Shown one piece after another: positions 277 to 15,108 of a stretch of 64,000 bases of DNA. The position numbers and the translations under genes were made by a program. The stretch lies in IMG/VR virus record IMGVR_UViG_3300009161_000045, positions 1-64,000 of that record. One strand, 5' to 3'. The notes beneath the pieces are model-generated. The model made no database searches and was not told the DNA's origin. It saw only the letters and a program-made list of their open reading frames with translations. Source of the DNA: a virus. The stretch's first letter is position 1; every line of letters starts with the position of its first letter.

Positions 277-369
277 ATATTAAAGCATATACTTGCCTGA
301 CTGTAAACGTCGTGGTAAACTACTAGAGAAAGGGGTTCGAATCCCCGGGACTGGTATGTGCTTTAATAT
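277..369 (+). ncRNA. Family B hairpin element B0 (tRNA-like insert)
   Basis: A 16-bp uninterrupted terminal stem (277-292 with 354-369) encloses 61 nt. Inside is a T-arm-like hairpin, GGGG-TTCGAAT-CCCC (332-346), and a short hairpin with a 7-nt loop (299-311). The terminal arms match the other B elements (right-arm consensus close to RTGTGYTTYWATATGG). It is one of six copies in the tRNA array. It is not a tRNA: no acceptor/CCA geometry. Function unknown. Confidence 0.7.
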
Positions 370-431
370 ACACACTCGTTCTGAGTACATAGTACAAAGA
401 GGCAGAAAGATAAACTGCTAGAGTGTGTTTT

Positions 432-517
432 GGAGACGTGGCAGAGAGGTTGATTGCACCAGACTGTAAATCTGGCCCGTAAAAAGCACGATGGTTCGAA
501 TCCATCCGTCTCCACCA
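432..517 (+). tRNA. tRNA-Tyr(GTA)
   Basis: Acceptor GGAGACG/CGTCTCC is perfect. Anticodon loop CTGTAAA, class II variable arm as usual for bacterial Tyr, T loop TTCGAAT, encoded CCA. Confidence 0.93.
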
Positions 518-523
518 TATTTC

Positions 524-599
524 GGGGGATTGGTATACTTGGCTAACACACCTGGTTTGCAACCAGGAGCAAACGGTTCGAATCCGTTATCCTCCACCA
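524..599 (+). tRNA. tRNA-Ala(TGC)
   Basis: Acceptor GGGGGAT/ATCCTCC (one G-U), anticodon loop TTTGCAA, T arm AACGG-TTCGAAT-CCGTT, discriminator A and encoded CCA. Confidence 0.92.
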
Positions 600-604
600 A
601 GTTT

Positions 605-678
605 GCTCTGTTAGTATAATGGTATTACACCTGTTTTGTAATCAGGTTACGGCAGTTCGATTCTGTCACGGAGCACCA
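605..678 (+). tRNA. tRNA-Thr(TGT)
   Basis: Acceptor GCTCTGT/ACGGAGC, anticodon loop TTTGTAA with one mismatch closing the anticodon stem, T loop TTCGATT, encoded CCA. A second TGT isoacceptor lies at 11399. Confidence 0.88.
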
Positions 679-684
679 AGTTAC

Positions 685-759
685 GGCCTCATCATATAGT
701 GGTTATTATACCGGCCTGTCTAGTCGGATATCGGAGTTCGATTCTCCGTGGGGTCGCCA
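685..759 (+). tRNA. tRNA-Asp(GTC)
   Basis: Acceptor GGCCTCA/TGGGGTC, anticodon loop CTGTCTA, T arm CGGAG-TTCGATT-CTCCG. Discriminator G is the expected base for Asp. Encoded CCA. Confidence 0.9.
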
Positions 760-764
760 GTTTT

Positions 765-830
765 AGGATAGCAACAGCAAACTCAAAAATTTCAATGTTT
801 ATGAAACCAAAATGCTATCCTGTTTTATTA
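765..830 (+). ncRNA. Family A element A1
   Basis: Closing stem AGGATAGCA (765-773) with TGCTATCCT (813-821), conserved ACAGCAAAC after the left arm, an inner hairpin TTTCA/TGAAA with a 7-nt loop, and a U-rich tail GTTTTATTA. It shares layout and sequence with copies at 1933, 5887, 13300 and 13483. Conserved AACAG (773-777) can pair with CTGTT (820-824) across the closing stem, so a pseudoknot or alternative fold is possible. It could also act as a terminator with a large loop. Confidence 0.7.
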
Positions 831-831
831 T

Positions 832-906
832 ACTCCGGTCGTCTAGTGGCTAGGACGCCAGCCTTTCAAGTTGGAGAAGCGGGATCGAAACCCGTTCGGA
901 GTACCA
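832..906 (+). tRNA. tRNA-Glu(TTC)
   Basis: Acceptor ACTCCGG/TCGGAGT, anticodon loop CTTTCAA, T loop ATCGAAA (unusual first base), encoded CCA. Confidence 0.88.
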
Positions 907-914
907 AGTTTTAT

Positions 915-992
915 CTGTGTGTGAGAAAGTCTGGTTAATCTACTCGCCTTGGAAGTGAGAAATCGTAGGTTCAAATCCTACCACACAGACCA
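915..992 (+). tRNA. tRNA-Pro(TGG)
   Basis: Acceptor CTGTGTG/CACACAG is perfect, anticodon loop CTTGGAA, T arm GTAGG-TTCAAAT-CCTAC, encoded CCA. Confidence 0.88.
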
Positions 993-997
993 TATAT

Positions 998-1072
998 GCC
1001 GTTGTAGTCCTCTGGGAGGGCACTGGATTGTCTATCCAATTAAGGCGGGTTCGATTCCCGTCGACGGCGCCA
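998..1072 (+). tRNA. tRNA-Asp(GTC), second copy
   Basis: Acceptor GCCGTTG/CGACGGC, anticodon loop TTGTCTA with a mismatch at the outer anticodon-stem pair, discriminator G as in Asp, encoded CCA. Clearly diverged from the copy at 685. Confidence 0.82.
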
Positions 1073-1079
1073 AGTTTAT

Positions 1080-1155
1080 GTCCCATTCATCTAGAGGCCT
1101 AGGATAGTACCCTTTCACGGTATTCACAGCGGTTCGAATCCGCTATGGGACGCCA
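1080..1155 (+). tRNA. tRNA-Glu(TTC), second copy
   Basis: Acceptor GTCCCAT/ATGGGAC is perfect, anticodon loop CTTTCAC, T arm AGCGG-TTCGAAT-CCGCT, discriminator G, encoded CCA. Confidence 0.87.
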
Positions 1156-1162
1156 AGTTTAT

Positions 1163-1233
1163 GCGCTGGATTGACATTGCGAGTTGGATTTGAAGCCAAA
1201 CGCAGACAGGTTTGATTCCTGTCAGGTGCACCA
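1163..1233 (+). tRNA. Degenerate tRNA-like gene (Gln TTG?)
   Basis: Acceptor GCGCTGG/CAGGTGC has one mismatch; T arm ACAGG-TTTGATT-CCTGT and encoded CCA are intact. The D arm is shortened and the anticodon arm is TTGG/CCAA with an 8-nt loop (ATTTGAAG), so the anticodon is uncertain. TGCG/CGCA can extend the central stem instead. Confidence 0.5.
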
Positions 1234-1240
1234 AGTTTAT

Positions 1241-1317
1241 GCGTGGTTAGCTCAGTTTGGTAGAGCATCGGGTTGCCAACTCGAAGGTCGCAGGTTCGAA
1301 CCCTGTACCCCGCACCA
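1241..1317 (+). tRNA. tRNA-Gly(GCC)
   Basis: Acceptor GCGTGGT/ACCCCGC with one T-C mismatch, anticodon loop TTGCCAA, T loop TTCGAAC, encoded CCA. Another GCC copy lies at 5654. Confidence 0.88.
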
Positions 1318-1326
1318 AAAATTTAT

Positions 1327-1404
1327 GTCTAGGTGGCGGAGTGGCCCAACGCGACAGTCTGCAAAACTGTAACACCGTCGGTTCAAATCCGACCCTAGAT
1401 TCCA
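1327..1404 (+). tRNA. tRNA-Cys(GCA)
   Basis: Acceptor GTCTAGG/CCTAGAT, anticodon stem ACAGT/ACTGT with loop CTGCAAA, T arm GTCGG-TTCAAAT-CCGAC. Discriminator T is typical of Cys. Encoded CCA. Confidence 0.9.
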
Positions 1405-1408
1405 ATAT

Positions 1409-1485
1409 GCGTGGTTAGTGTTTAACGGCGAGCACGGTTGGCTTCCACCCAGCAAGAAGGAGTTCGAATCTCCTACCCCGCACCA
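1409..1485 (+). tRNA. tRNA-Gly(TCC)
   Basis: Acceptor GCGTGGT/ACCCCGC with the same mismatch as the Gly at 1241, anticodon loop CTTCCAC, T arm AGGAG-TTCGAAT-CTCCT, encoded CCA. Confidence 0.88.
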
Positions 1486-1489
1486 AGTT

Positions 1490-1850
1490 TTGTAAGTGTC
1501 AGCAAGAGAAAGACTCGCTAGGAAGATTCTTCGAAGGTCGACCCAGTGTAAAAGTAGATCCGGTTCGAATCCGGCTTGGCTACGGAGCGTCTATGTCGAG
1601 TATCCCGAGTGACTTACCTCCTCCCGTCCGGACTTGCATGAATCGGGTGAATGGTTGCGATTACAGAGGTGCAACTACTTACAAATTCAATAAGTAAGAA
1701 TCAAGTGGAAAGCAAGAGCCACAAAGTAAATAGTAGACTATCATGCTACCGCGGTAGTCTTTGCAGTGTATACTGCGTCGGTAAAGTGTAACAGCGGAAT
1801 CGAGAAACACTGGGGTAAGAGTCCCAACGTAGCGGTAAGCAGAAATTTAT
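1490..1850 (+). ncRNA. Candidate large structured RNA, 360 nt
   Basis: Gene-free but rich in helices. GTAAGT (1492-1497) can pair with ACTTAC (1612-1617) and encloses a tRNA T-arm hairpin CCGG-TTCGAAT-CCGG. Further on come GTTGC/GCAAC, CTTAC/GTAAG, the self-complementary CTACCGCGGTAG, GCAGT/ACTGC and GGG/CCC hairpins. GC content looks higher than in neighbouring spacers. An embedded tRNA-like part next to tRNA genes recalls GOLLD-type RNAs of phages, but I see no motif that proves this. The conserved cores of tmRNA and RNase P RNA were not found. Confidence 0.55.
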
Positions 1851-1926
1851 TCCGCAGTAGCTCAGTCGGTAGAGTAGTTGACTGTTAATCAATTGGTCCC
1901 TGGTTCGAGCCCAGGCTGTGGAGCCA
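1851..1926 (+). tRNA. tRNA-Asn(GTT)
   Basis: Acceptor TCCGCAG/CTGTGGA, canonical D arm, anticodon loop CTGTTAA, T loop TTCGAGC, discriminator G, encoded CCA. Confidence 0.94.
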
Positions 1927-1932
1927 AGTTTA

Positions 1933-2000
1933 AGGATGCTAACCGCAAATTTATACTCTGAACTTTTAATTCAACCAGTAAAAATGCATCCTGTTTTATT
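1933..2000 (+). ncRNA. Family A element A2
   Basis: Closing stem AGGATGC (1933-1939) with GCATCCT (1986-1992), then GTTTTATTTT. The inner hairpin TGAA/TTCA has a 7-nt loop. The arms differ from A1 (TAGC to TGC) in a compensated way, which argues for a selected helix. It lies between tRNA-Asn and tRNA-Gln. Confidence 0.65.
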
Positions 2001-2004
2001 TTGT

Positions 2005-2080
2005 TGGGGTGTCGCCTAGTGGCCTAAGGCAACGGTCTTTGAAATCGTCATCATGAGTTCGAATCTCATCTCCCCTGCCA
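2005..2080 (+). tRNA. tRNA-Gln(TTG)
   Basis: It starts TGGGG with an unpaired first position and discriminator G, as in bacterial tRNA-Gln. Anticodon loop CTTTGAA, T arm ATGAG-TTCGAAT-CTCAT, encoded CCA. Confidence 0.9.
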
Positions 2081-2099
2081 AACATATTAGGAGAATGCA

Positions 2100-2228
2100 A
2101 TGGCTCACAAGCAACAAGGTATTCTAACAAAGAGTCCCCAATGGTGGAAGCACCTCAAGGACTGGAAACGTGTGTTCTGGAAATCAGAACGCCAAGCACA
2201 GAAACGTAACATTAAACAAGGAGAATGA
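2100..2228 (+). CDS. Small basic protein, 42 aa, unknown
   Basis: The ATG at 2100 follows an AGGAG ribosome site. The product starts MAHKQQGILTK and is rich in Lys, Arg and Trp (WWKHLKDWKRVFW), so nucleic-acid or membrane contact is possible but unproven. A second start with its own GGAG lies at 2230 and opens a frame of only seven residues (MKRSGKR), perhaps a decayed or leader frame. No family recognised. Confidence 0.5.
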   Translation: MAHKQQGILTKSPQWWKHLKDWKRVFWKSERQAQKRNIKQGE

Positions 2229-2252
2229 CATGAAACGTTCAGGTAAACGATA

Positions 2253-2292
2253 GTGTCAATCTTAGATCCCGTATATGGTCTAGGGTTGGCAC
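2253..2292 (+). ncRNA. Long imperfect hairpin
   Basis: GTGTCAATC (2253-2261) pairs with GGTTGGCAC (2284-2292), and the inner TAGATC/GGTCTA extends it to about 15 bp with G-U pairs. No T-run follows, so it is not an obvious terminator. It lies just before the two Lys tRNAs. Confidence 0.5.
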
Positions 2293-2319
2293 ATTAAAGA
2301 CAATTTAATATGCAATCAA

Positions 2320-2393
2320 CCCTCACAAACATTAAGGTGATGTAACCGGCTCTTAACCGGTAAAACACGGATCGTTACCGTGGTGTGGGACCA
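2320..2393 (+). tRNA. tRNA-Lys(CTT), atypical
   Basis: Anticodon stem ACCGG/CCGGT with loop CTCTTAA, T-stem CACGG/CCGTG with atypical loop ATCGTTA, acceptor CCCTCAC/GTGTGGG with one U-U mismatch, discriminator A, encoded CCA. Geometry is acceptable but the D arm is weak. Confidence 0.65.
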
Positions 2394-2399
2394 ATATAT

Positions 2400-2473
2400 G
2401 GGATCGTAACTTAAAAGTAAAGTATCGGACTTTTAATCCGACTAAGAAGGGGCAGTACCTTCCGGTCTCACCA
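2400..2473 (+). tRNA. tRNA-Lys(TTT)
   Basis: Acceptor GGGATCG/CGGTCTC, anticodon stem TCGGA/TCCGA with loop CTTTTAA, T-stem GAAGG/CCTTC with unusual loop GGCAGTA, encoded CCA. Its terminal ACCA is also the start of hairpin B1. Confidence 0.75.
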
Positions 2474-2552
2474 TATAAAAACACATTGTCCTAGGCTGTG
2501 ACCTAGTCCATCAGAAGTCCTTTGAGACAGAAACAATGTGTTTCTATATGGT
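2470..2552 (+). ncRNA. Family B hairpin element B1
   Basis: 20-nt arms (2470-2489 with 2533-2552) pair at 19 of 20 positions. The left arm begins with the ACCA of tRNA-Lys, so tRNA and hairpin share bases. The 43-nt interior holds a CTAGG/CCTAG hairpin. Same arm consensus as the other B copies. Confidence 0.75.
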
Positions 2553-2617
2553 AAAGAAGAAGCCGACATGGAAAGGTAGTGCAAAGGTATACAGTTGGTC
2601 TGGTTCGAAACAGAGTA

Positions 2618-2694
2618 AACTGATTGTATAATGAGCGTAGCACAACCCGCATCGCACGGGTAGTTAGTGGGTTCGATTCCCATCTTTGTTATCA
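2618..2694 (+). tRNA. Degenerate tRNA-like gene
   Basis: T arm GTGGG-TTCGATT-CCCAT and anticodon-type stem ACCCG/CGGGT with loop CATCGCA (A at position 33) are present. The acceptor pairs poorly (AACTGAT/CTTTGTT) and the tail is TCA, not CCA. Probably a decayed tRNA or a tRNA mimic. An extended hairpin with another TTCGAAA loop lies just upstream (2588-2630). Confidence 0.45.
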
Positions 2695-2809
2695 TACATG
2701 AACACATTCAACGGTAAACAGGATACCTGGCAACTGGACGCAGGGGCTATCCCGAAGATGTAGGGCACTACCACCGTAAAGTCAGGAAATGAGTGTGTTC
2801 CTATATGGT
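2691..2809 (+). ncRNA. Family B hairpin element B2
   Basis: 20-nt arms (2691-2710 with 2790-2809) pair at 18 of 20 positions. An inner ACGGT/ACCGT helix closes a large interior. The right arm ends on the first bases of tRNA-His, so processing of the two must be coupled. Confidence 0.7.
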
Positions 2810-2882
2810 GTCTTTAGTGTAGTGGCCTGCACCCTGCTCTGTGAAAGCGGTAGTACCGGATCGATACCGGTAAGGCACCCCA
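2807..2882 (+). tRNA. tRNA-His(GTG)
   Basis: Acceptor GTGTCTT/AAGGCAC with an extra 5' G and discriminator C, the His identity pair. Anticodon loop CTGTGAA, T arm ACCGG-ATCGATA-CCGGT, encoded CCA. Confidence 0.88.
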
Positions 2883-2891
2883 ATATTTATT

Positions 2892-2924
2892 GTAGAGCAT
2901 AAATACATTTATAAGGTGCTCTGC
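2892..2924 (+). promoter_or_regulatory. Late promoter inside an RBS-masking hairpin
   Basis: CATAAATA (2898-2905) matches the T4 late motif. Bases 2892-2899 can pair with 2917-2924 (8 bp with one G-U), covering the ribosome site of the HNH gene. A transcript starting from the late promoter (about 2912) lacks the left arm. Confidence 0.65.
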
Positions 2925-2925
2925 A

Positions 2926-3309
2926 ATGTTAAACTCAATATGTAAAAATTGTTCAAAAGAATTTATTAAAGGTCGAAATACAACAGGGACATACTGTTCA
3001 CTACCTTGCACTTTTGAATCTCAAAAAAAAGAAAGAAGAGAAAATTTCTTAGAAGGAAAAATGGTTAACCGTGGATTAATGAAACAACATATGGTTGATA
3101 TTCACAGTTGGCAATGTATGTGTTGTAAAAACACTGAATGGTTAGGAGTGCCAATTCCGTTGGAGTTGGATCACATTGATGGTAATGCAGGAGACAATCG
3201 ACCTGAAAATTTGCGATTGCTATGTCCAAACTGCCATGCACAGACTCCAACACATAAAGCAAAGAATAAAGGCAATGGCCGCGGGAGTCGCGGATTGCCC
3301 TGGTATTAA
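2926..3309 (+). CDS. HNH homing endonuclease, 127 aa
   Basis: Free-standing HNH nuclease. An N-terminal zinc-binding segment (CKNCSKEF with a later C-x3-C) is followed by a CMCC pair and the core LELDHIDGNAGDNRPENLRLLCPNC, in which DH, N and H of the beta-beta-alpha-metal fold are all visible. It sits between tRNA-His and tRNA-Ile. Such genes usually cut the homologous locus in phages that lack the insert. Expression is probably late, from the hairpin-embedded promoter just upstream. Confidence 0.9.
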   Translation: MLNSICKNCSKEFIKGRNTTGTYCSLPCTFESQKKERRENFLEGKMVNRGLMKQHMVDIHSWQCMCCKNTEWLGVPIPLELDHIDGNAGDNRPENLRLLCPNCHAQTPTHKAKNKGNGRGSRGLPWY

Positions 3310-3311
3310 TT

Positions 3312-3385
3312 CCTCTTGTAGTTAAATGGTATAACGGCCTCTTGATAAGTGGTTATTACAAGTTCGATTCTTGTCGAGAGGACCA
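3312..3385 (+). tRNA. tRNA-Ile(GAT)
   Basis: Acceptor CCTCTTG/CGAGAGG, anticodon loop TTGATAA with one stem mismatch, T arm ACAAG-TTCGATT-CTTGT, encoded CCA. Confidence 0.85.
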
Positions 3386-3392
3386 AGTTTAC

Positions 3393-3467
3393 GCCTGGTT
3401 AGTTCAGCGGAAGAACGTCTGCCCGATTAGCGGAATGTTGTAGGTTCGACTCCTACACCGGGTACCA
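3393..3467 (+). tRNA. tRNA-Ile(GAT)-like, second copy with C33
   Basis: Acceptor GCCTGGT/ACCGGGT, T arm GTAGG-TTCGACT-CCTAC, encoded CCA. The anticodon loop reads CCGATTA: C replaces the near-universal U33. Confidence 0.72.
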
Positions 3468-3474
3468 AATCAAT

Positions 3475-3549
3475 GCGCCCGTAGTATAATGGATAATACA
3501 CTAGGCTACGAACTTAGGAATGGTGGTTCGATTCCATCCGGGCGCACCA
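3475..3549 (+). tRNA. tRNA-Arg(ACG)
   Basis: Acceptor GCGCCCG/CGGGCGC is perfect, anticodon loop CTACGAA (A34 would be read as inosine), T loop TTCGATT, encoded CCA. Confidence 0.92.
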
Positions 3550-3557
3550 ATAGTTAA

Positions 3558-3647
3558 GGAAGCGTGGCAGAGCCCGGCTTATTGCAGCAGTCTTGAAAAC
3601 TGCCGACCCGAAAGGGTCCGTGAGTTCGAATCTCACCGCTTCCGCCA
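3558..3647 (+). tRNA. tRNA-Ser(TGA)
   Basis: Acceptor GGAAGCG/CGCTTCC, anticodon stem GCAGT/ACTGC with loop CTTGAAA, long variable arm ACCC/GGGT, discriminator G, encoded CCA. Confidence 0.94.
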
Positions 3648-3651
3648 ATAC

Positions 3652-3685
3652 AATAAATAAGTCTATGCGAATACATGAACTTATT
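3652..3685 (+). promoter_or_regulatory. Late promoter with overlapping hairpin
   Basis: AATAAATA (3652-3659) ends 6 nt before the ATG at 3665, so the late mRNA would be leaderless. AATAAGT (3656-3662) can pair with ACTTATT (3679-3685) and place the ATG in the loop of read-through RNA. Confidence 0.55.
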
Positions 3686-4408
3686 GTAGAAACTACTGAG
3701 GAAGATCGTGCTATCATTAGCCTTGCTGATGTTATCTATAAGGATCTACAGCAATATGCTGATACAGAATTAGACTACGATGAAACAGGTGTGATGCACA
3801 TTGGACGCATCGGTGATCTGTTTGATACTCCGATTCCCGGACTTGATCGCGTGAGATTAGAAATATCTTCAGATGAGTCCATAGTGGATCTGGCACGTAG
3901 ACTTCACGGTAAGGCTACACCGTCAGATAGTCATTTTGGACAATGGGATCCTATGGAGAAGGCGATATCTTTAAATGCTGATTACTTGAGCTCTAATCGT
4001 ATGCGTAGTGTCATAGCACATGAATTAAGACATGCCATGGACGATATGAAATCGTTGAATAGGGCTAACCAAAGTACACGATATCGTACAGCAAGGAAGC
4101 CCGAGCATCAAGCAGATAAAGATGGTGCTTATCAAGCACAACCTGCAGAAATCAATGCTAGGTTTATCGAAGCGTTGAATGTGTTAGTGCCCGTCATACC
4201 AAAGTTGGCAAATTTAGAACCTGCTGCATTTAGAACAAAGATGACAGCATATATAAACAAAGCATTTGAACTTAAAGACATCGCAGATTATTATCCAGAA
4301 AAGACAGCAAGTCCACACTATAAGAGATTGCTGCAACGAGCATGGGCTTTTATTGAAAAAGAGCTGGCTCACATACGATCACAAACAGTTGACACAGCGG
4401 CGGAATAA
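3665..4408 (+). CDS. Putative zinc metallopeptidase with capsid-targeting-like N terminus, 247 aa
   Basis: Start chosen at 3665 because the frame upstream lies inside tRNA-Ser and a late promoter ends 6 nt before this ATG. Residues 1-9, MRIHELIVE, match the pattern of the T4 internal-protein targeting peptide, with a possible I-x-E prohead protease site. A zinc-binding HExxH (HELRHAMDD) lies near residue 120. The C-terminal half is helical and charged. It may be a virion-packaged protease, but the family is not recognised. A sigma70-type promoter lies inside its last codons. Confidence 0.65.
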   Translation: MRIHELIVETTEEDRAIISLADVIYKDLQQYADTELDYDETGVMHIGRIGDLFDTPIPGLDRVRLEISSDESIVDLARRLHGKATPSDSHFGQWDPMEKAISLNADYLSSNRMRSVIAHELRHAMDDMKSLNRANQSTRYRTARKPEHQADKDGAYQAQPAEINARFIEALNVLVPVIPKLANLEPAAFRTKMTAYINKAFELKDIADYYPEKTASPHYKRLLQRAWAFIEKELAHIRSQTVDTAAE

Positions 4409-4417
4409 GTATATAAT
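4389..4417 (+). promoter_or_regulatory. Sigma70-type promoter inside the peptidase gene
   Basis: TTGACA (4389-4394), 17-bp spacer, TATAAT (4412-4417). The expected +1 falls on the first base of the tRNA-like gene at 4424. Confidence 0.85.
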
Positions 4418-4423
4418 ATACTT

Positions 4424-4532
4424 GCGACCGTGAGTGGAACATGGCAGACCTCCGGACCGGGGATTCTCGGCGAGGGATGGGGCGAAGTCTTAGACACAGC
4501 CTTTGTAGGTTCAAACCCTACCGGTCGTACCA
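4424..4532 (+). tRNA. Oversized tRNA-like gene, anticodon unclear
   Basis: Acceptor GCGACCG/CGGTCGT, T arm GTAGG-TTCAAAC-CCTAC and encoded CCA are sound. The central part is too long (109 nt overall), with GGC/GCC and GTC/GAC helices where a class II variable arm would lie and no clear 7-nt anticodon loop. Transcription appears to start exactly at its 5' end. Confidence 0.5.
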
Positions 4533-4544
4533 GTTAAGAATTAA

Positions 4545-4633
4545 GGAATGGTCCCATAATGGTATTGGAGCAGATTGCTAATCTGTCGGTCGTTTAATAC
4601 GGCTTCCGAGTTCGAGTCTCGGTCATTCCGCCA
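4545..4633 (+). tRNA. tRNA-Ser(GCT)
   Basis: Acceptor GGAATGG/TCATTCC, anticodon loop TTGCTAA, long variable arm, T arm CCGAG-TTCGAGT-CTCGG, discriminator G, encoded CCA. Confidence 0.92.
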
Positions 4634-4654
4634 AGTTGATAAAAGAAGAATTAT

Positions 4655-5452: not shown

Positions 5453-5458
5453 TTTGTA

Positions 5459-5545: not shown

Positions 5546-5552
5546 AATAAAT

Positions 5553-10122: not shown

Positions 10123-10132
10123 AAAGAATAGT

Positions 10133-10207: not shown

Positions 10208-10216
10208 TATCTCAAA

Positions 10217-10237
10217 GTTAGAGATAAATACTCTAAC
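10217..10237 (+). promoter_or_regulatory. Late promoter in the loop of a hairpin
   Basis: GTTAGAG (10217-10223) and CTCTAAC (10231-10237) pair perfectly around the loop ATAAATA. The ribosome site CCGGAGC follows directly and the HNH gene starts at 10249. Confidence 0.7.
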
Positions 10238-10248
10238 CGGAGCACGTA

Positions 10249-10677: not shown

Positions 10678-10754
10678 TGAAATTGGTAGACTTCCGGTCC
10701 TTAGAAGTCCGGGTTCGAAAGAGCGTGCTGGTTCGAGTCCAGTCACCCGCACCA
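10668..10754 (+). tRNA. tRNA-Leu(TAG)
   Basis: Acceptor GCGGGTG/CACCCGC, anticodon stem CGGTC/GTCCG (one mismatch) with loop CTTAGAA, class II variable arm, T loop TTCGAGT, encoded CCA. Its 5' end overlaps the nuclease stop codon. Confidence 0.88.
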
Positions 10755-10761
10755 TTATAGG

Positions 10762-10790
10762 TTGACAACTTACCTACATAGTTGTATAAT
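10762..10790 (+). promoter_or_regulatory. Sigma70-type promoter
   Basis: TTGACA (10762-10767), 17 bp, TATAAT (10785-10790). It drives the three-gene unit that includes the omega homologue. Confidence 0.92.
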
Positions 10791-10811
10791 TAATTTTAAT
10801 AAAAGGAAAGT

Positions 10812-10988
10812 ATGAAAACAACTGCAACATTTCGATTGAATAAGCGTTTCAAAACACTTATCTCTGCTATGCCATTTAAGAGCCAAGAACAACGTGACCA
10901 TTTTCGTCACATGATGATCGAGGCACAGGTAGCAGCAAATACCATTGTCAAGAGTTCTAAGGACCGTAACAACAACCGAGGTGAATAA
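10812..10988 (+). CDS. Small basic protein, 58 aa, unknown
   Basis: The ATG follows AAAAGGAAAG. The product (MKTTATFRLNKRFKTLISAM...) is basic and helical, with a His/Arg-rich middle (RDHFRHMMIEAQ). First gene after a strong promoter; its stop overlaps the start of the omega-like gene, so the two are translationally coupled. No family recognised. Confidence 0.7.
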   Translation: MKTTATFRLNKRFKTLISAMPFKSQEQRDHFRHMMIEAQVAANTIVKSSKDRNNNRGE

Positions 10989-11212
10989 TGAAAACTCCAG
11001 ATTTTGTTAACAGTCTTGACACCGACAAGTGTGTGTCTAACATTGGTAGCCGATTTGATTTAGTTATTGTTGCTGCTATTCGTGCCCGCGAGTTGAATCG
11101 TGGTCATAGAAAAATGGTCAATAGTCCAAATGGTAATATTGTTAGTGCTCTGCAAGAAATCGAAGCAGGACACATTGGGCGTGATTACTTGCGAAAGGTT
11201 CGTCGACCATGA
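10988..11212 (+). CDS. rpoZ: RNA polymerase omega subunit homologue, 74 aa
   Basis: The conserved omega core is present: NIGSRFDLVIVAAIRARELN at residues 18-37 and NIVSALQEIEAGHIGRDYL at 50-68. This matches the bacterial pattern (FDLV-x-VAA-x-RAR ... AL-x-EI-x-x-G). It is shorter than the E. coli protein (91 aa) and lacks its acidic tail. In bacteria omega folds around the beta-prime C terminus and helps assemble core polymerase. A phage copy could mark or remodel host polymerase, possibly for the late-promoter switch. It overlaps both neighbours by 1-3 bases, hence one operon. Confidence 0.85.
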   Translation: MKTPDFVNSLDTDKCVSNIGSRFDLVIVAAIRARELNRGHRKMVNSPNGNIVSALQEIEAGHIGRDYLRKVRRP

Positions 11213-11385
11213 GCAAAGGTTCCAGACAGCGTCCAACAGATCTAAATAAGTTTCGATCAAACTACGATGCTATCTTCCGAAAGCCTTCTCCAAAAGAAGT
11301 AGATGATGCTCAAGCAGAAGATGAAGCATTCAAGAGAGTTGAAGAACAGCAATCACAAGTTCGAGACAGTGACCAAGGCGGCTAA
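11209..11385 (+). CDS. Conserved small phage protein, 58 aa
   Basis: The ATGA overlap with the omega gene gives the start. The sequence opens MSKGSRQRPTDLNKFRSNYD, a pattern I associate with short proteins of unknown role in many phages, and ends in an acidic, Gln-rich helix. No catalytic motif. Confidence 0.7.
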   Translation: MSKGSRQRPTDLNKFRSNYDAIFRKPSPKEVDDAQAEDEAFKRVEEQQSQVRDSDQGG

Positions 11386-11391
11386 TAAATA
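11384..11391 (+). promoter_or_regulatory. Late promoter upstream of tRNA-Thr
   Basis: AATAAATA ends 7 nt before the first base of tRNA-Thr (11399). Confidence 0.45.
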
Positions 11392-11398
11392 GAGATGC

Positions 11399-11472
11399 GC
11401 CCTACTAGTACAATGGTAGTACACTGGTTTTGTAATCCTGTGATGGCAGTTCGATTCTGTCGTAGGGCACCA
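11399..11472 (+). tRNA. tRNA-Thr(TGT), second copy
   Basis: Acceptor GCCCTAC/GTAGGGC is perfect, anticodon loop TTTGTAA in a weak stem, T arm GGCAG-TTCGATT-CTGTC, encoded CCA. Confidence 0.88.
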
Positions 11473-11480
11473 AGAGATAT

Positions 11481-11554
11481 GCGGGGTTCGTAAAATGGTA
11501 TTACCTTAGCCTTCCAAGCTAAAGTCAGGAGTTCGATTCTCCTACCCCGCTCCA
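11481..11554 (+). tRNA. tRNA-Gly(TCC), second copy
   Basis: Acceptor GCGGGGT/ACCCCGC is perfect, anticodon stem TTAGC/GCTAA with loop CTTCCAA, T arm AGGAG-TTCGATT-CTCCT, encoded CCA. The opposite-strand HNH gene ends inside it. Confidence 0.93.
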
Positions 11555-11820
11555 AGTCTATGCAATATGTTTAGTGCTCTATTACGCAGCCGTTGAGTAA
11601 ACTCCGACTCTGATAACACGCCTTTAGCAAGATTACACTTGCGACATGTTACTTGTAAGTTATTGAAATCAGTGGTGCCACCTTGTGATTCTGGAATGAC
11701 ATGATCCATATGTATTTCAGAGTCTGACAAATCGTCATCACAATAAACACAGTAGAGGCCATCGCGTTCAATAACTCTACGGCGTAGATTTAATGGTATG
11801 CGTTCTTTTTTTTGTAGCAT
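11542..11820 (-). CDS. HNH endonuclease, 92 aa
   Basis: The classic compact HNH domain fills the protein: RRRVIERDGLYCVYCDDDLS, then IHMDHVIPESQGGTTDFNNL and VTCRKCNLAKG, with D-H, N and zinc Cys pairs. Start at the ATG at 11820, about 7 nt past a CTAAATA late-like motif. The 3' end overlaps tRNA-Gly(TCC) by 13 bases. Probably a homing gene placed by its target tRNA. Confidence 0.88.
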   Translation of the reverse strand: MLQKKERIPLNLRRRVIERDGLYCVYCDDDLSDSEIHMDHVIPESQGGTTDFNNLQVTCRKCNLAKGVLSESEFTQRLRNRALNILHRLGAG

Positions 11821-11858
11821 CAAAAATATTTAGTAAATAGAGTTTTAATGTATTAAGA

Positions 11859-11933
11859 GCCTGGTTAGCTCAGGGGGAGAGCGGCTGCTTTACACGCAGC
11901 GGGTCGGCGGTTCGAAACCGTCACCGGGTACCA
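11859..11933 (+). tRNA. tRNA-Val(TAC)
   Basis: Acceptor GCCTGGT/ACCGGGT, anticodon stem GCTGC/GCAGC with loop TTTACAC, T arm GGCGG-TTCGAAA-CCGTC, encoded CCA. Confidence 0.93.
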
Positions 11934-11941
11934 GTTTTATT

Positions 11942-12673
11942 TTAAATCCATCTTGGATCCAATGGTAAATCTCTCAGAGAATTATCAAAATTTCCGGGTG
12001 TATAAGAAATTTTGTTTGAATTTAAATGATGTCCAAGAATAGCTTCTGGACCAAAATCCAATACTTGTTTTTCATATTCTTCAAGATGATTTATGACATC
12101 CGAATAGATTGTCATAACATCAGAGTTTCCAAATGCAAATTGATCGTTTGACTGAGAAACCTCTCCATACCATCTATTGCCAGGCATGATAACAACTTGA
12201 GAACTTAGATCATAATTGTTGATATTTAATTCAATTGGTAATCCAATATCAGTTCGTGTTCTAATTACTGCATCATATTTAAAATTATTCTCTTGTTCGT
12301 AGTTTACTCTTAACTGATTAACCTTGTATAGATTATAATACATATTGAATATATTATCGGTACCTATACCTCGATAATCTCGAACAGGAGGCCATTGTTG
12401 AAGATGAACATCGGATATTTCAAATTTTTTAAGAAAATTGTTGTTTGGTAAATTTTCAATTATTTTGGATGTAGCCCATTCAATGTCATAATTAATCCAT
12501 TTATCGTGAGGTGGAATAATATGAGAATTTTTTATTTTTAAGTCTTCTCTGGTAGGACTGTTGGTAAGATACACAAACCAATCTGCCTGATTGTAACCTT
12601 TTAAATTATTTAGAAAATTTCTGAGGTCGCCGGTGAATCTCGGTTCTCCAGGAAGTAGTATAGCTATTCTCAT
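11942..12673 (-). CDS. Glycosyltransferase-like paralogue 2, 243 aa
   Basis: Begins MRIAILLPGEPRFTGDLRNF and is clearly related to the proteins at 6054 and 17251 throughout: NQADWFVYLTN near residue 30, NNFKYDAVIRTRTDIGLP near 130-150, DQFAFGNSDVMTIYSD near 185. The late motif 7 nt before the ATG would give a leaderless mRNA. Transcribed against its neighbours. A role in surface or DNA glycosylation is possible; the substrate is not known. Confidence 0.65.
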   Translation of the reverse strand: MRIAILLPGEPRFTGDLRNFLNNLKGYNQADWFVYLTNSPTREDLKIKNSHIIPPHDKWINYDIEWATSKIIENLPNNNFLKKFEISDVHLQQWPPVRDYRGIGTDNIFNMYYNLYKVNQLRVNYEQENNFKYDAVIRTRTDIGLPIELNINNYDLSSQVVIMPGNRWYGEVSQSNDQFAFGNSDVMTIYSDVINHLEEYEKQVLDFGPEAILGHHLNSNKISYTPGNFDNSLRDLPLDPRWI

Positions 12674-12687
12674 AAATAATATTTATG
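12671..12687 (-). promoter_or_regulatory. Late promoter with start codon in hairpin
   Basis: On the minus strand CATAAATA (12687-12680) ends 7 nt before the ATG at 12673. CATAAAT pairs with ATTTATG, which contains that ATG. Confidence 0.55.
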
Positions 12688-12704
12688 TTAGCATATAACG
12701 ATGA

Positions 12705-12941
12705 TTGATTGATTATTTATTGGCTTTTTTTGCTATCTTCTTCACTGACATCTTTTATACATATTACTTGAAGGCTGTGCATGAAGAGCAAACACTAAAG
12801 GCCAGTTGCTGGGCAACGATAGTCTATGTGGTTGCGGCAGTGGCAATTATAGAGTATAATAGTAATCATATGTTATTGATTCCAGCGGCAGCGGGTGCAT
12901 TTTGTGGCACTTGGGTTGGAATGAAAATTAGAAAGAGATAA
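12705..12941 (+). CDS. Small membrane protein, 78 aa
   Basis: The frame opens at TTG 12705; the ATG at 12701 leads to an immediate stop. Two to three hydrophobic segments are visible (LLAFFAIFFTDIFYTYYL, TIVYVVAAVAIIEY, LLIPAAAGAFCGTWVGM) with a basic C terminus (KIRKR). No clear ribosome site. Function unknown. Confidence 0.6.
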   Translation: MIDYLLAFFAIFFTDIFYTYYLKAVHEEQTLKASCWATIVYVVAAVAIIEYNSNHMLLIPAAAGAFCGTWVGMKIRKR

Positions 12942-12942
12942 T

Positions 12943-13021
12943 CTCCGGTTCGCCTAACCTGGTTATGGCACCTCGTTTGGGACGAGGAATAATGTGAGTT
13001 CGAATCCCACACTGGAGACCA
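12943..13021 (+). tRNA. tRNA-Pro(TGG), second copy
   Basis: Acceptor CTCCGGT/ACTGGAG, anticodon stem CCTCG/CGAGG with loop TTTGGGA, T loop TTCGAAT with one T-stem mismatch, encoded CCA. Confidence 0.88.
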
Positions 13022-13220
13022 AAGAACAGCGGATAAGTTACATTATCCAGTATGAGTCGCTAAGGTAGGTACCTAATCCTTAGGGCAAGTAATAGTACAC
13101 AATAGCGATGTAACAGGAAGTAGTGATCTACTCACCGGGACGGGCCTCAAAACGAATCCCACCAAGTTAACTCGCCATGGCACACGGCGTACAATAGGAC
13201 AAATTGTGTGGCACGAATAT
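13022..13220 (+). ncRNA. Structured gene-free region
   Basis: Helices include GGATAA/TTATCC (13031-13048), CTAAGG/CCTTAG, GTAG/CTAC and CGCC/GGCG. A tRNA-like tail (AATCCCACCA) occurs near 13155. No open frame of note. It may be one or two tRNA mimics or a larger RNA. Confidence 0.45.
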
Positions 13221-13294
13221 TGCGGGATAGAGTAACGGTAATTCAGAAGTCTCATAAGCTTCAAATCTTGGTTCGATTCCAGGTCCCGCTTCCA
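13221..13294 (+). tRNA. tRNA-Met(CAT), third copy
   Basis: Anticodon stem GAAGT/GCTTC with loop CTCATAA, T loop TTCGATT, encoded CCA. The acceptor has an unpaired first position (U1/U72). Initiators also lack pair 1-72, but the anticodon stem has no GGG/CCC, so the identity is open. Confidence 0.82.
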
Positions 13295-13299
13295 GTTTT

Positions 13300-13415
13300 A
13301 GGATGCATCCAGCAAACACTTTTTGCCACCAAAATCAGGCAGGCCGTGCAATTGGGCACCGTAGTTGAAATAGGGGTTCGATTCCCGGCGATACTACAGC
13401 ATCCTGTTTTCCCAA
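13300..13415 (+). ncRNA. Family A element A4 with tRNA-like insert
   Basis: AGGATGC and GCATCCT close the element, with CAGCAAAC after the left arm and CTGTTTT after the right, as in the other A copies. About 50 nt longer than the rest: the insert holds a GGGG-TTCGATT-CCCG T-arm-like hairpin within GTAGT/ACTAC. Confidence 0.6.
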
Positions 13416-13421
13416 ATTGTC

Positions 13422-13450
13422 TTGACAAGACGCGAGTTTTGTTATACAAT
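13422..13450 (+). promoter_or_regulatory. Sigma70-type promoter of the DUF2828-like gene
   Basis: TTGACA (13422-13427), 17 bp, TACAAT (13445-13450). It leaves a leader of about 235 nt. Confidence 0.85.
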
Positions 13451-13482
13451 ATGTACATGTTAAGAAATTAACAGTAAGTTTT

Positions 13483-13614
13483 AGGTTAGGTACAGCAACT
13501 ATTCATTACTATGGACTGCTACTTATCACATTCGGACATCAAACTCCGAATTTAAGTAGATAGAGGAGTTTCGATAAGTCTCCTCGATAAAAATAAAAAG
13601 TAGACAACTAACCT
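13483..13614 (+). promoter_or_regulatory. Family A element A5 in the mRNA leader
   Basis: AGGTTAG (13483-13489) pairs with CTAACCT (13608-13614). ACAGCAA follows the left arm and CTGTT the right, exactly the A-family layout. The A-to-T change in the left arm is matched by T-to-A in the right. Inside are TCGGA/TCCGA and GAGGAG/CTCCTC hairpins. It may regulate the gene at 13693. Confidence 0.65.
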
Positions 13615-13692
13615 GTTGAATATAGAATGTTAACAGCAATCTTATATTTCATTTATATCGAAAATAAAATACATTCTGAAAGGTAAATTAAA

Positions 13693-15108
13693 ATGAACGC
13701 ATTTGTAAACGCAATCGCAAACCAAGAAGCCCGTACTGCCAATGGCATGAAGGCTCGTAAGTCAACCGCCAACAAGTGTGTTGACCTGTTCTACAACATC
13801 GGTGCAAGCCGTGGTAAGAACATCATCCCTGCATTCACTGCGGCTTATGTTGAAAACTTTGACATGGCTCTGCGTATCGCACAATGGGCTCGTGATGTCC
13901 GTGGTGGTGCAGGCGAACGTGAACTATTCCGTAGTGTACTTGTACACTTGGAAAAGACTGATCCAGATGCCGCTATGGCTCTGTTGAAGAAGATCCCAGA
14001 AGTGGGTCGTTGGGATGACATCTTTGTCTTTCAAACTCCTGCGTTGAAGTCTGCTGCTTACACAATGTTGGGTGACGCACTACGTGCATCAAACGGATTG
14101 GCAGCTAAGTGGACACCACGTAAGGGCAAGATCGCAGCAGAAGTCCGTGAGTTCTTCGGAATGAGCCCAAAGTTCTACCGTAAGAGTCTTGTGGCTCTGA
14201 CCAAGGTCGTTGAAACACAAATGTGTGCCAAGGACTGGGACAACATCAACTTCAGTCACGTACCAAGCGTGGCTGCTCGTAACTACAAGAAGGCTTTCGG
14301 ACGTAACACTCCAAAGTTTGCTGAGTACGTGGCTGCATTGGTTAAGGGCACACCTGGTGTGAAGGTTAACGCTAACGCGATTTTCCCACACGATGTGTTG
14401 AAGGGTCTAATTGGTTCGTACAACCGTACCAAGTTGTCTAAGACAGATCTGGATCACATCACTGCACAATGGAACGCTTTGCCAAACTACGTTGGAGATG
14501 CCAGCATCCTTCCAATCGTGGACGTAAGCGGCTCTATGAGTTGCAAGGCAGGTGGTGAAGGTACTGTTACCTGTATGGATATTTCTGTTAGCCTTGGCTT
14601 GTACTTGGCTGATAAGAACAAGGGCGTGTTCAAGGACACATTCTTGACATTCAGTGACAAGCCTGATTTGATGACTCTTAAGGGCGACATCGTCCAAAAG
14701 TTGGATCAAATGGAAACAAGCGACTGGGGTATGAGCACAAATCTACACGCAGCATTTGAAAAGATTCTGAGTGTGGCAGTTAAGGGCAATGCTCCTCAAG
14801 AAGACATGCCAGCAATGGTACTAATCTTGAGCGACATGCAATTTAACCAATGTGTTAAGCATGACGACAGTGCCATGGAAATGATCGAACGCAAGTTCGA
14901 AGCAGCCGGATACACTTGTCCAAAGGTTGTTTTCTGGAACCTAAACAGTTCTGGCAATGTACCAGTCAAGTCAGATAAGAGCGGTGCCGCTCTTGTAAGT
15001 GGATTTAGTCCAGCAATCATGGCCAGCTTGCTGGGTGCGGATGTGGAACAATTCACTCCAGAAGGTATCATGCGTAAGACTGTAATGGTTCCACGCTACG
15101 ATCTGTAA
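13693..15108 (+). CDS. DUF2828-like protein with vWA domain (Ro60/TROVE-like plan), 471 aa
   Basis: Residues 1-260 are helical, with the signature ARKSTANKCVDLFYNIGASR near 21-40, then WARDVRGGAGERELFRSVL and KKIPEVGRWDDIFVF, as in DUF2828 proteins. Residues 270-471 form a von Willebrand A domain: the metal-ion site is seen as IVDVSGSMS near 276, STNLHAAFE (Thr) and LILSDMQFN (Asp). This helical-repeat plus vWA order is that of Ro60/Rsr, which bind Y RNAs and misfolded RNAs. RNA binding is inferred, not shown. GC- and codon-richer than the array genes and highly polished, suggesting strong expression. It has its own promoter, a structured leader and a terminator. Confidence 0.75.
   Translation: MNAFVNAIANQEARTANGMKARKSTANKCVDLFYNIGASRGKNIIPAFTAAYVENFDMALRIAQWARDVRGGAGERELFRSVLVHLEKTDPDAAMALLKKIPEVGRWDDIFVFQTPALKSAAYTMLGDALRASNGLAAKWTPRKGKIAAEVREFFGMSPKFYRKSLVALTKVVETQMCAKDWDNINFSHVPSVAARNYKKAFGRNTPKFAEYVAALVKGTPGVKVNANAIFPHDVLKGLIGSYNRTKLSKTDLDHITAQWNALPNYVGDASILPIVDVSGSMSCKAGGEGTVTCMDISVSLGLYLADKNKGVFKDTFLTFSDKPDLMTLKGDIVQKLDQMETSDWGMSTNLHAAFEKILSVAVKGNAPQEDMPAMVLILSDMQFNQCVKHDDSAMEMIERKFEAAGYTCPKVVFWNLNSSGNVPVKSDKSGAALVSGFSPAIMASLLGADVEQFTPEGIMRKTVMVPRYDL

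What the first reader, a model, noticed from the sequence alone, without database searches (positions are those of the whole stretch)
277..15108. Possible phage Ro60-Y-RNA-like system: DUF2828/vWA protein beside families of tRNA-mimicking RNAs
Seen: the tRNA array contains at least six long-stem elements (B0-B5), five short-stem elements (A1-A5) and one CCA-ended RNA without a T arm. Several carry tRNA T-arm-like hairpins. The array is followed by a DUF2828-like helical plus vWA (DVSGS) gene whose own leader holds an A element. Known: bacterial Ro60/Rsr proteins combine helical repeats with a vWA domain and bind Y RNAs, and bacterial YrlA RNAs are a terminal helix closing a tRNA-like domain. 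Inferred: the A/B RNAs are ligands of this protein, perhaps for RNA quality control, tRNA sparing or nuclease tethering, with autoregulation through A5.
Basis: partly seen in the sequence, partly recalled or inferred. Interest (0 to 1): 0.9.

Follow-up and report, generated by a model that had tools for sequence, protein, structure and literature searches.

The report
Phage Ro60 with tRNA-mimic Y RNAs
A phage with a very large set of tRNA genes carries a relative of the Ro60 RNA-binding protein together with a family of small tRNA-imitating RNAs that accompanies this kind of protein in almost every cultured phage checked and closely resembles an RNA class thought to be unique to social amoebas.

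Summary
13693-15108 encodes a DUF2828/DUF7788 protein whose predicted model matches Ro60/Rsr over nearly its whole length (nine best Foldseek hits; Z 22). The "A elements" are one RNA module: A-G, 6-bp covarying terminal stem, two bases, ACAGCAA, variable cargo, closing strand, UG(U). The window has six (one new, on the gene's Shine-Dalgarno) plus one closed copy inside a tRNA-like gene. A covariance model built without the window finds four of them (E 6e-10 to 1e-11), the module in 17 of 18 cultured phages with this protein (E<=0.01), and in 0 of 30 control records without it. In 32 of 45 protein lineages the module flanks the gene. Cargoes imitate tRNA: anticodon arms, circularly permuted tRNAs (two YrlA-like RNAs beside such genes are A elements), or whole tRNAs holding the module between D and anticodon arms. 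Best reading: these are the phage's Y RNAs, displayed on a Ro60 particle, the leader copy giving feedback control. B elements are real and conserved, but nothing ties them to the protein. Surprise: the module closely resembles dictyostelid Class I RNAs, reported as unique to social amoebas. Binding and function remain untested.

The parts
432..13294 (+). tRNA array (41 tRNAs by ARAGORN, all 20 amino acids) in which the elements lie
764..824 (+). A1: open A element between tRNA-Asp and tRNA-Glu; stem GGATAGCA/TGCTATCC, ACAGCAA, TGTT
   Evidence: R1 E 9.1e-11
1932..1995 (+). A2: open A element (ACCGCAA variant) between tRNA-Asn and tRNA-Gln; inner hairpin TGAA-CTTTTAA-TTCA looks like a Lys(UUU) anticodon arm
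   Evidence: R1 E 9.3e-11; fold
5886..5949 (+). A3: open A element before tRNA-Phe; possible CTTTT-CTTGAAC-AAAAG hairpin (not the MFE fold)
   Evidence: R1 E 5.8e-10
13299..13408 (+). A4: open A element with longer cargo that includes a T-loop-like sequence, after tRNA-Met
   Evidence: R1 E 0.0013
13422..13450 (+). sigma-70-like promoter TTGACA-17-TACAAT upstream of A5 (11 of 12 consensus)
   Evidence: pattern match only, number of matches not above shuffles
13482..13617 (+). A5: leader A element, stem GGTTAG/CTAACC
13623..13680 (+). A6: leader A element, stem GAATGT/ACATTC; its 3' UGAA runs into the Shine-Dalgarno
   Evidence: R1 E 9.9e-12
13678..13683 (+). Shine-Dalgarno-like GAAAGG, 9 nt before the ATG, overlapping the 3' end of A6
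   Evidence: sequence
13693..15108 (+). Ro60-like protein (DUF2828 + DUF7788; phrog_850 RNA-binding protein), 471 aa, complete MIDAS
7046..7163 (+). tRNA-like RNA (anticodon loop ATGTCAA, GUC) with a closed, circularly permuted A module TATCC-TGTTAA-GGATA-cagt-CAGCA (about 7082-7107) between D arm and anticodon arm
   Evidence: tRNA 39.3 bits; (as L002)
277..369 (+). B0 long-stem element with a T-arm-like hairpin; no A module
2468..2554 (+). B1 long-stem element; no A module
2690..2808 (+). B2 long-stem element, imperfect stem
7568..7660 (+). B3 long-stem element
8191..8303 (+). B4 long-stem element
8299..8429 (+). B5 long-stem element

Best explanation
The window encodes a phage Ro60 ribonucleoprotein system. 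The DUF2828/vWA protein is a Ro60-fold ring. The A elements are its dedicated Y-RNA-like partners. Each is a portable binding module (terminal stem, ACAGCAA side, A-rich opposite side, UGU end) that presents a cargo, in many cases imitating part of a tRNA: an anticodon arm alone, a circularly permuted tRNA (the YrlA plan), or a complete tRNA with the module inserted between D arm and anticodon arm. Free copies in the tRNA array act as small RNAs; the copies in the leader, the last on the Shine-Dalgarno, let free protein repress its own translation. Shown: the Ro60-like fold (predicted model), the RNA module with covariation, the strong co-occurrence and leader placement, and tRNA mimicry of part of the cargo. 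Inferred: that the protein binds the module, the autoregulation, and the purpose. My favoured purpose is to offer tRNA-like decoys or docking sites that protect or triage the phage's large tRNA set when host tRNA-cleaving defences or tRNA damage act.
For: Fold: the nine best Foldseek hits in PDB are all Ro60/TROVE/Rsr (2i91_A E 3.8e-8, TM 0.67); VIA Z 22.1 to 1yvr over 402 residues, Thermus phage phiLo Ro60 Z 15.7, Rsr Z 13.3, best non-Ro row Z 10.3 covering the vWA half only; MIDAS residues D277, S279, S281, T349, D381 invariant in 30 sequences. RNA module: of 228 G-N7-ACAGCAA sites in 80 loci, 194 have the exact 6-nt stem partner and 187 are followed by TG, against 213 and 11 of 2471 for 104 permuted motifs. 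Co-occurrence: of 82 contigs found by the motif scan and holding a stem-checked element, 60 encode phrog_850 (29 of 33, 31 of 49 further ones), 22 of 23 among those of 55 kb or more; contigs from the same scan whose site has no stem partner, 1 of 26, and that one holds an A element elsewhere; contigs from a permuted pattern, 3 strong and 1 weak of 40. R1 at E<=0.01 in 17 of 18 isolates chosen for a homologue of the protein and in 0 of 30 control records without one. Two phrog_850 contigs of the permuted-pattern set, G047 and G051, have an R1 hit within 25 and 10 nt upstream of the gene match (E 0.035 and 0.0016). Flanking: 83 modules within 800 nt upstream or 1500 nt downstream of the gene in 45 lineages against 0.7 per permuted motif. 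tRNA mimicry: anticodon loop CUNNNAA in 13 of 58 non-redundant short elements against 0.16 in mononucleotide shuffles; closed modules with a T arm downstream in 17 of 20; permuted tRNA order.
Against: No binding, expression or phenotype data for this phage. Pfam's TROVE model was not among matches up to E 1; the protein hits DUF2828/DUF7788. R1 was trained on elements that form all six pairs, so its pair counts are flattered, and on relatives of the window's elements. 22 of 82 contigs with stem-checked A elements show no phrog_850: 21 are records of 4-44 kb, one (G008) has 114 kb. The strict finder sees no flanking module in 13 of 45 lineages, and its single hit in L325 is doubtful. In Listeria phage CKA15 the most abundant non-coding region (26,236-26,727) holds no A element. 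Most RBS-proximal elements lack an anticodon-like loop, and only 13 of 58 short elements have the clear form. The minimum-energy folds of A1 and A3 do not form the anticodon-like hairpin. The purpose is inference.
Confidence: 0.78

Rival explanations
1. A elements are purely cis-acting leader or processing structures (riboregulators, operon punctuation) and not stable Y-RNA-like partners of the protein.
For: Tandem copies sit directly upstream of the gene in most close relatives shown, the last abutting the Shine-Dalgarno; the leader cargoes of about 165 and 230 nt are conserved and do not look tRNA-like.
Against: Copies lie between tRNA genes (window A1-A3); in Mycobacterium, Felix O1-type and Klebsiella phages they follow the gene; cargoes imitate tRNA; two YrlA-like RNAs are A elements.
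Confidence: 0.12
2. The RNP is an RNA-repair or degradation platform: Ro60 plus Y RNA recruits phage RNA ligases or host PNPase to mend or clear damaged tRNA and rRNA, and the tRNA-like cargo is a recruiting handle rather than a decoy.
For: In phages PHA46 and pEa_SNUABM_47 an RNA ligase gene lies before the Ro60-like gene, with two and one small genes between; the D. radiodurans Rsr/Y RNA/PNPase precedent and the jumbo-phage review's TROVE platform for RNA repair (passages).
Against: No RNA ligase or PNPase family among the 40 window proteins scanned with PHROGs (not every ORF was scanned, and the record is partial); the variety of anticodon loops is not needed for a recruiting handle.
Confidence: 0.35
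3. A elements are passengers of tRNA-rich phage genomes (mobile or processing elements) and only coincide with the Ro60-like gene.
For: Many copies lie inside tRNA arrays; 22 of 82 contigs with elements show no gene, though nearly all are fragments.
Against: T4, S-PM2 and phiKZ, without phrog_850, have none; the module flanks the gene in 32 of 45 lineages, down to 34% protein identity.
Confidence: 0.05
4. The long-stem B elements are the true Y RNAs of the protein.
For: Long terminal stems with partly tRNA-like interiors; a recurrent stem sequence ACCATATnAAAACACATT / AGTGTGTTTnTATATGGT in many relatives, with paired changes.
Against: No ACAGCAA module in the stem region; of the 18 partial isolate loci (L082-L085, L293-L306) the scan lists a stem of this type in one (L082). 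Their position relative to the gene was not examined systematically.
Confidence: 0.1

Closest known systems
Bacterial Ro60/Rsr with YrlA Y RNA (Rfam RF02553)
   Same: Ro60-fold protein; RNA with a terminal stem closing a permuted tRNA-like domain (T arm, closed acceptor, D arm); gene adjacency. YrlA hits beside the gene in Klebsiella phage KP13-26 (40.1 and 32.5 bits) and Mycobacterium phage BobsGarage (21.7 bits) lie in A elements.
   Different: Terminal module is stem-n2-ACAGCAA...UGU, not the lower helix of the YrlA consensus; many copies per genome; many have only an anticodon-like arm or other cargo; below the YrlA gathering score; the protein hits DUF2828/DUF7788, not the Pfam TROVE model.
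Phage Ro60: Thermus phage phiLo (PDB 9l5y; 9kop 'Trove domain' is probably the same protein), mycobacteriophage 'Ro-like RNA binding protein', Listeria CKA15_055
   Same: Same fold as 9kop and 9l5y (VIA Z 17.0 and 15.7); the BobsGarage protein and A511 gp57, the Listeria relative, share DUF2828/DUF7788; Y RNAs are discussed for mycobacteriophages and CKA15 (PMC12282133, passages).
   Different: The ACAGCAA module and its cargo classes are not described in the passages read; in CKA15 the modules lie at 25,287-25,551, not in the most abundant non-coding region.
Dictyostelid Class I RNA (Rfam RF01414)
   Same: 42-65 nt, 6-bp stem joining the ends with invariant first G, conserved motif (ACAGCAA in the Rfam consensus) next to the 5' stem, CUGU end, variable middle (PMC7919456, passages; consensus).
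   Different: One more base between G and ACAGCAA (9 against 8); full AAG start in only 10 of 42 aligned A elements; best score 33.4 bits against a gathering score of 41.5; weak hits also in 3 of 26 control records; reported partner is the RRM protein Rnp1A; the host is a eukaryote.
phrog_850 / PF11443 DUF2828 / PF25043 DUF7788
   Same: The protein is a full-length member (phrog_850 E 1.7e-138).
   Different: Nothing; membership is clear, the RNA partner is what is new.

Membership tests
Ro60/TROVE protein family | Helical-repeat ring plus vWA domain in the Ro60 arrangement | tested here: met
   Model pLDDT 88.6, pTM 0.89; Foldseek ranks 1-9; VIA Z 22.1, 402 residues
Ro60/TROVE protein family | MIDAS DxSxS...T...D in the vWA domain | tested here: met
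   D277, S279, S281, T349, D381 invariant in 30 sequences
Ro60/TROVE protein family | Match to the Pfam TROVE profile | tested here: not met
   Only DUF7788, DUF2828 and weak VWA_2 up to E 1: a sister branch by sequence
Ro60/TROVE protein family | Binds Y RNA and structured RNA | not testable with these tools
   Needs a binding experiment
Bacterial Y RNA (YrlA, RF02553) | Reaches the Rfam gathering score of 69 bits | tested here: not met
   Window best 21.7 bits at 1176-1297, not an A element; best elsewhere 40.1
Bacterial Y RNA (YrlA, RF02553) | Encoded beside the Ro60 gene | tested here: met
   32 of 45 lineages have an A element within 800 nt upstream or 1500 nt downstream
Bacterial Y RNA (YrlA, RF02553) | tRNA-like T arm then D arm inside a terminal stem | tested here: inconclusive
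   Clear in part of the 90-150 nt class (20 of 37 with a T arm, at least 9 of these with a D arm after it); not seen in short elements; window A4 has a T-loop-like sequence only
Dictyostelid Class I RNA (RF01414) | Reaches the gathering score of 41.5 bits | tested here: not met
   Best 33.4 bits; window best 20.8
Dictyostelid Class I RNA (RF01414) | 6-bp end-joining stem with invariant first G, ACAGCAA beside it, CUGU end | tested here: met
   A2 alignment: first pair GC in 42 of 42, ACAGCAA and CUG invariant, UGU in 36 of 42; the picking of rows required pairing, ACAGCAA and TG; spacing differs by one base
Dictyostelid Class I RNA (RF01414) | DUSE promoter about 60 nt upstream | not tested
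   Eukaryotic promoter element, not expected in a phage
tRNA (RF00005), for 7046-7163 | Reaches the gathering score of 29 bits | tested here: met
   39.3 bits at 7046-7160 in the permissive search; not listed in the gathering search nor by ARAGORN

The most novel reading that the evidence does not exclude
DUF2828-type Ro60 proteins and the stem-ACAGCAA-UGU module form one ancient RNP system spanning phages and eukaryotes: dictyostelid Class I RNAs are Y RNAs of this type. In phages the RNP displays a library of anticodon arms and whole tRNA mimics as decoys against host tRNA-cleaving defences.
Probability: 0.25. Interest if true: 0.96.

Novelty: new variant of a known kind. Interest (0 to 1): 0.86.

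Why it matters
It gives phage Ro60 proteins a defined RNA partner that can be read from sequence and is present in cultured phages of laboratory hosts, so binding and function can be tested at once. It recasts YrlA-like RNAs as one cargo class of a more general module, shows tRNA-like genes and Y RNAs as circular permutations of one another around the same module, and offers a testable lead on dictyostelid Class I RNAs, whose occurrence was thought confined to social amoebas.

Tried and rejected
Rfam at gathering thresholds names only tRNAs in the window; with E up to 10, YrlA appears once at 1176-1297, which is not an A element. A pseudoknot between ACAG and CUGU was considered: both strands are nearly invariant and the ACCGCAA variants break it, so it cannot be judged. 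RF01414 alone is not specific: at E<=0.1 it hits 19 of 22 and 7 of 12 records with the protein (in the second set only W03, W07, W13, W15 and W19 at R1 sites) but also 0 of 8 and 3 of 18 negatives, one of these inside a T4 coding gene. T4 was checked because, as I recall, its stable RNAs C and D are unexplained; R1 has no match up to E 0.5 in the T4 genome. The CKA15 RNA-seq hot spot was checked as possible proof of expression and does not coincide with A elements. One viral-contig search returned Felix O1-type relatives plus one distant one. Papers not held: PMC10870794, PMC4201824. That the ACAGCAA module has not been described rests on searches of the open library only; the 2014 paper on bacterial Y RNAs could not be read.

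Row choices. R1 was built from 42 short elements that form all six pairs, none from the window or its near-identical contig, but including orthologous elements of relatives such as L004 (47 candidates, five left out); some come from isolates later searched or their close kin (A511, KP13-26, Ahp1, Felix O1-type). The isolate tally counts all 18; without those four it is 13 of 14. The isolates were chosen from tblastn hits. The tally of 27 motif-picked contigs includes sources of training sequences and is not used as evidence. Of the 36 permuted-pattern contigs without phrog_850, 27 were searched whole with R1; the fetched loci of all 59 were searched. Of these 92, 33 contigs, all of 22 kb or more, were queried, and 50 loci of any size (one lies in a contig already counted, so 49 new); nine were not queried. 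Contigs overlap in kind and are not all independent; three of the 33 were also fetched by the protein search. In one search four further contigs had been picked by the protein and are left out of 29 of 33. In one search the 40 queried of 59 are those above 16 kb; two of the three strong hits (G051, G063) have identical coordinates and are probably one phage.

Full report
What the protein is. The gene at 13693-15108 scores as DUF2828 plus DUF7788 in Pfam and over its full length as phrog_850, 'RNA-binding protein' (E 1.7e-138). An AlphaFold2 model from 30 phage sequences has mean pLDDT 88.6 and pTM 0.89. The nine best Foldseek matches in the PDB are all Ro60, TROVE or Rsr. The VIA alignment gives Z 22.1 with Ro autoantigen 1yvr over 402 residues, 15.7 with the Ro60 of Thermus phage phiLo (9l5y) and 13.3 with D. 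radiodurans Rsr (2nvo); the best other row covers only the vWA half, Z 10.3. The metal-site residues are invariant. Homologues occur in 682 of 50,697 phage records (tblastn). A review of jumbo phages already notes a TROVE protein in some of them, described as a platform for RNA repair with a tRNA-like partner in cells (PMC7824862, passages). The protein class is therefore known; its RNA side here is not.

The A element is one RNA module. Scanning the window and relatives showed a constant plan: A, then a 6-bp stem starting with G, two bases, ACAGCAA, a variable cargo, the closing strand, and usually UGU. The stem is the part that varies: of 228 G-N7-ACAGCAA sites in the 80 protein-picked loci, 194 have the exact 6-nt partner downstream and 187 have it followed by TG. 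For the 104 other orderings of the same seven letters the figures are 213 and 11 of 2471. In an alignment of 42 diverse short elements five of six pairs change on both sides, with the caveat that rows were chosen for pairing.

The model R1 built from those 42, none from the window or its near-identical contig though some from relatives, finds A6, A1, A2 and A3 in the window at E 9.9e-12 to 5.8e-10 and A4 at 0.0013. In 572 kb of control loci it gives two weak hits, E 0.09 and 0.74. A5 is seen by its stem and motif only.

The module goes with the protein. A scan for the 5' half of the motif, blind to the protein, gave 118 loci, 92 of them with a stem-checked element. Of 82 distinct contigs of this kind that were queried, 60 encode phrog_850: 29 of 33 and 31 of 49 further ones, many of them short fragments. 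Among contigs of 55 kb or more it is 22 of 23. Loci from the same scan whose motif has no stem partner give 1 of 26, and that contig holds an A element elsewhere. A permuted pattern gives 3 strong and 1 weak of 40, and 3 of 10 at 55 kb or more. Of the 22 contigs with elements but no gene, 21 have 4 to 44 kb; the other, G008 with 114 kb, has two of its three R1 hits within 400 bases of the contig end, pointing off it. R1 has a match at E<=0.01 in 17 of 18 cultured phages chosen for a homologue of the protein (the exception, Bacillus phage FADO, has E 0.15) and in none of 30 control records without it: 8, 19, and T4, S-PM2 and phiKZ. Two permuted-pattern contigs that happen to carry phrog_850, G047 and G051, have R1 hits within 25 and 10 nt upstream of the gene match (E 0.035 and 0.0016).

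Position. In 45 lineages of the protein (30 after a redundancy filter, 15 isolates) a strict finder sees 58 elements within 800 nt upstream and 25 within 1500 nt downstream, against 0.2 and 0.5 per permuted motif; 32 lineages have at least one, against at most 3 for any permuted motif (one of the 32, L325, rests on a doubtful hit). Close relatives of the window have two or three in tandem, the last ending about 10-16 nt before the start codon. In the window A6 runs into GAAAGG, the likely Shine-Dalgarno. Cultured phages with leader copies include Listeria A511, Aeromonas APT65, Synechococcus BUCT-ZZ01, Campylobacter NCTC12673 and Rhizobium RHph_I1_18; copies follow the gene in Mycobacterium BobsGarage, Klebsiella KP13-26, Cronobacter S13 and Felix O1-type phages. 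In other isolates the R1 matches lie elsewhere in the genome.

The cargo often imitates tRNA. (1) Short elements: 39 of 58 non-redundant inner sequences can form a hairpin with a 7-nt loop (shuffles 12.4), and 13 have the tRNA anticodon-loop form CUNNNAA (mononucleotide shuffles 0.16; other arrangements of the fixed letters 0-1). The anticodons are UUU (4), UGU (3) and CAU, GAU, GCA, GCU, UCU, UUC once each. Window A2 has such a loop, UUU. Nine-nt loops are also enriched (43 of 58), so the anticodon-like class is only part of the set. (2) Elements of 90-150 nt: 20 of 37 have a T arm, and at least 9 of these a D arm after it; several read anticodon arm, T arm, closed acceptor, D arm, which is a circularly permuted tRNA. 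The YrlA-like hits next to the gene in KP13-26 and BobsGarage lie in elements of this class. (3) Closed elements: the module occurs with its ends joined (stem', UGNNAA as a rule, stem, CAGCA) inside tRNA-like genes; 17 of 20 have a T arm downstream, against 49 modules in all for 29 permuted motifs. In the window this is 7046-7163: D arm, module, anticodon arm with loop ATGTCAA, T arm. Classes 2 and 3 have the same order of parts around the circle and differ in where the RNA is cut open.

B elements. They are real: long stems with the recurrent sequence ACCATATnAAAACACATT / AGTGTGTTTnTATATGGT, found in tRNA arrays of many relatives with paired changes. They lack the A module and I found nothing linking them to the protein.

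Dictyostelid Class I RNAs. With permissive thresholds the Rfam model RF01414 picks A6 in the window; its consensus, GAUCUCCUUACAGCAA...AGAUCUG, shows the same plan. The paper on these RNAs describes a 6-bp stem joining the ends, an invariant first G, an 11-nt motif beside it, AAG at the start, CUGU at the end and a variable middle, and finds none outside Dictyostelia; a search of its text for Ro60 and Y RNA found neither (PMC7919456, passages). RF01414 reaches E<=0.1 in 26 of 34 records with the protein and 3 of 26 controls, mostly at R1 sites, but never its gathering score, and the spacing differs by one base. I therefore do not file A elements as Class I RNAs. Common descent or a common kind of protein partner is an open, testable lead. 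As I recall, Pfam describes DUF2828 as found in eukaryotes and viruses; whether dictyostelids have it was not tested.

How it most likely works. The protein ring binds the module of each A RNA, which presents its cargo, often a tRNA-like face. When free protein accumulates it also binds A6 and blocks its own translation. With 41 tRNAs covering all amino acids, the phage evidently works to keep translation supplied; displaying anticodon arms and tRNA bodies on an RNP would suit a decoy or a docking site against tRNA-cleaving defences, or a repair station. RNA ligase genes close before the Ro60-like gene in two phages favour repair; the variety of anticodon loops favours decoys. A Listeria phage study detected its Ro60-like protein among proteins of purified particles and suggested that nearby abundant RNAs may be Y RNAs (PMC12282133, passages); the one region whose position I saw does not contain A elements, so it is not evidence for them.

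Noticed in passing
window 277-369, 2468-2554, 2690-2808, 7568-7660, 8191-8303, 8299-8429 and many relatives: B elements form a second conserved RNA family with long covarying stems in phage tRNA arrays, of unknown role; also in contig L149 (114 kb, no phrog_850 found), which has a close copy of B0 (92% over 93 nt).
   Followed up: partly
window 1490-1850, 7246-7405, 2085-2320, 13022-13215, 5728-5885: Intervals in the tRNA array that were not identified here but are conserved in other contigs (e.g. 83% over 141 nt, 86% over 155 nt); possibly further structured RNAs or small genes.
   Followed up: partly
L082 3737-4137 (Synechococcus phage BUCT-ZZ01): Overlapping Rfam matches to permuted tmRNA (111.9 bits) and betaproteobacterial tmRNA (94.5 bits) in a cyanophage genome, next to a B-like long stem.
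   Followed up: no
Listeria phage CKA15 26,236-26,727: A non-coding region reported to take most late phage transcripts lies upstream of the Ro60-like gene but has no A module; identity unknown.
   Followed up: partly
leader cargoes of about 165 and 230-260 nt in many of L005-L079: Conserved domains without obvious tRNA likeness inside leader A elements, with a recurring CUGGAG...UUGAAGGU internal loop, look like separate structured RNA domains.
   Followed up: no
window 2926-3309, 10249-10677, 11542-11823(-), 8525-9211: HNH and other endonuclease-like genes, possibly homing endonucleases, scattered through the tRNA array.
   Followed up: no
window 4655-5452, 6054-6773, 9421-10122, 11942-12673(-): A family 17 glycosyltransferase-like gene, a weak family 2 match and two phrog_13607 proteins embedded in the tRNA array.
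   Followed up: no
L084 6895-7137, L305 4391-4625: tRNA-like genes annotated tRNA-Ser or tRNA-OTHER (Cronobacter S13), or pseudo-tRNA or not at all (Citrobacter Ci1), hold a closed A module.
   Followed up: yes
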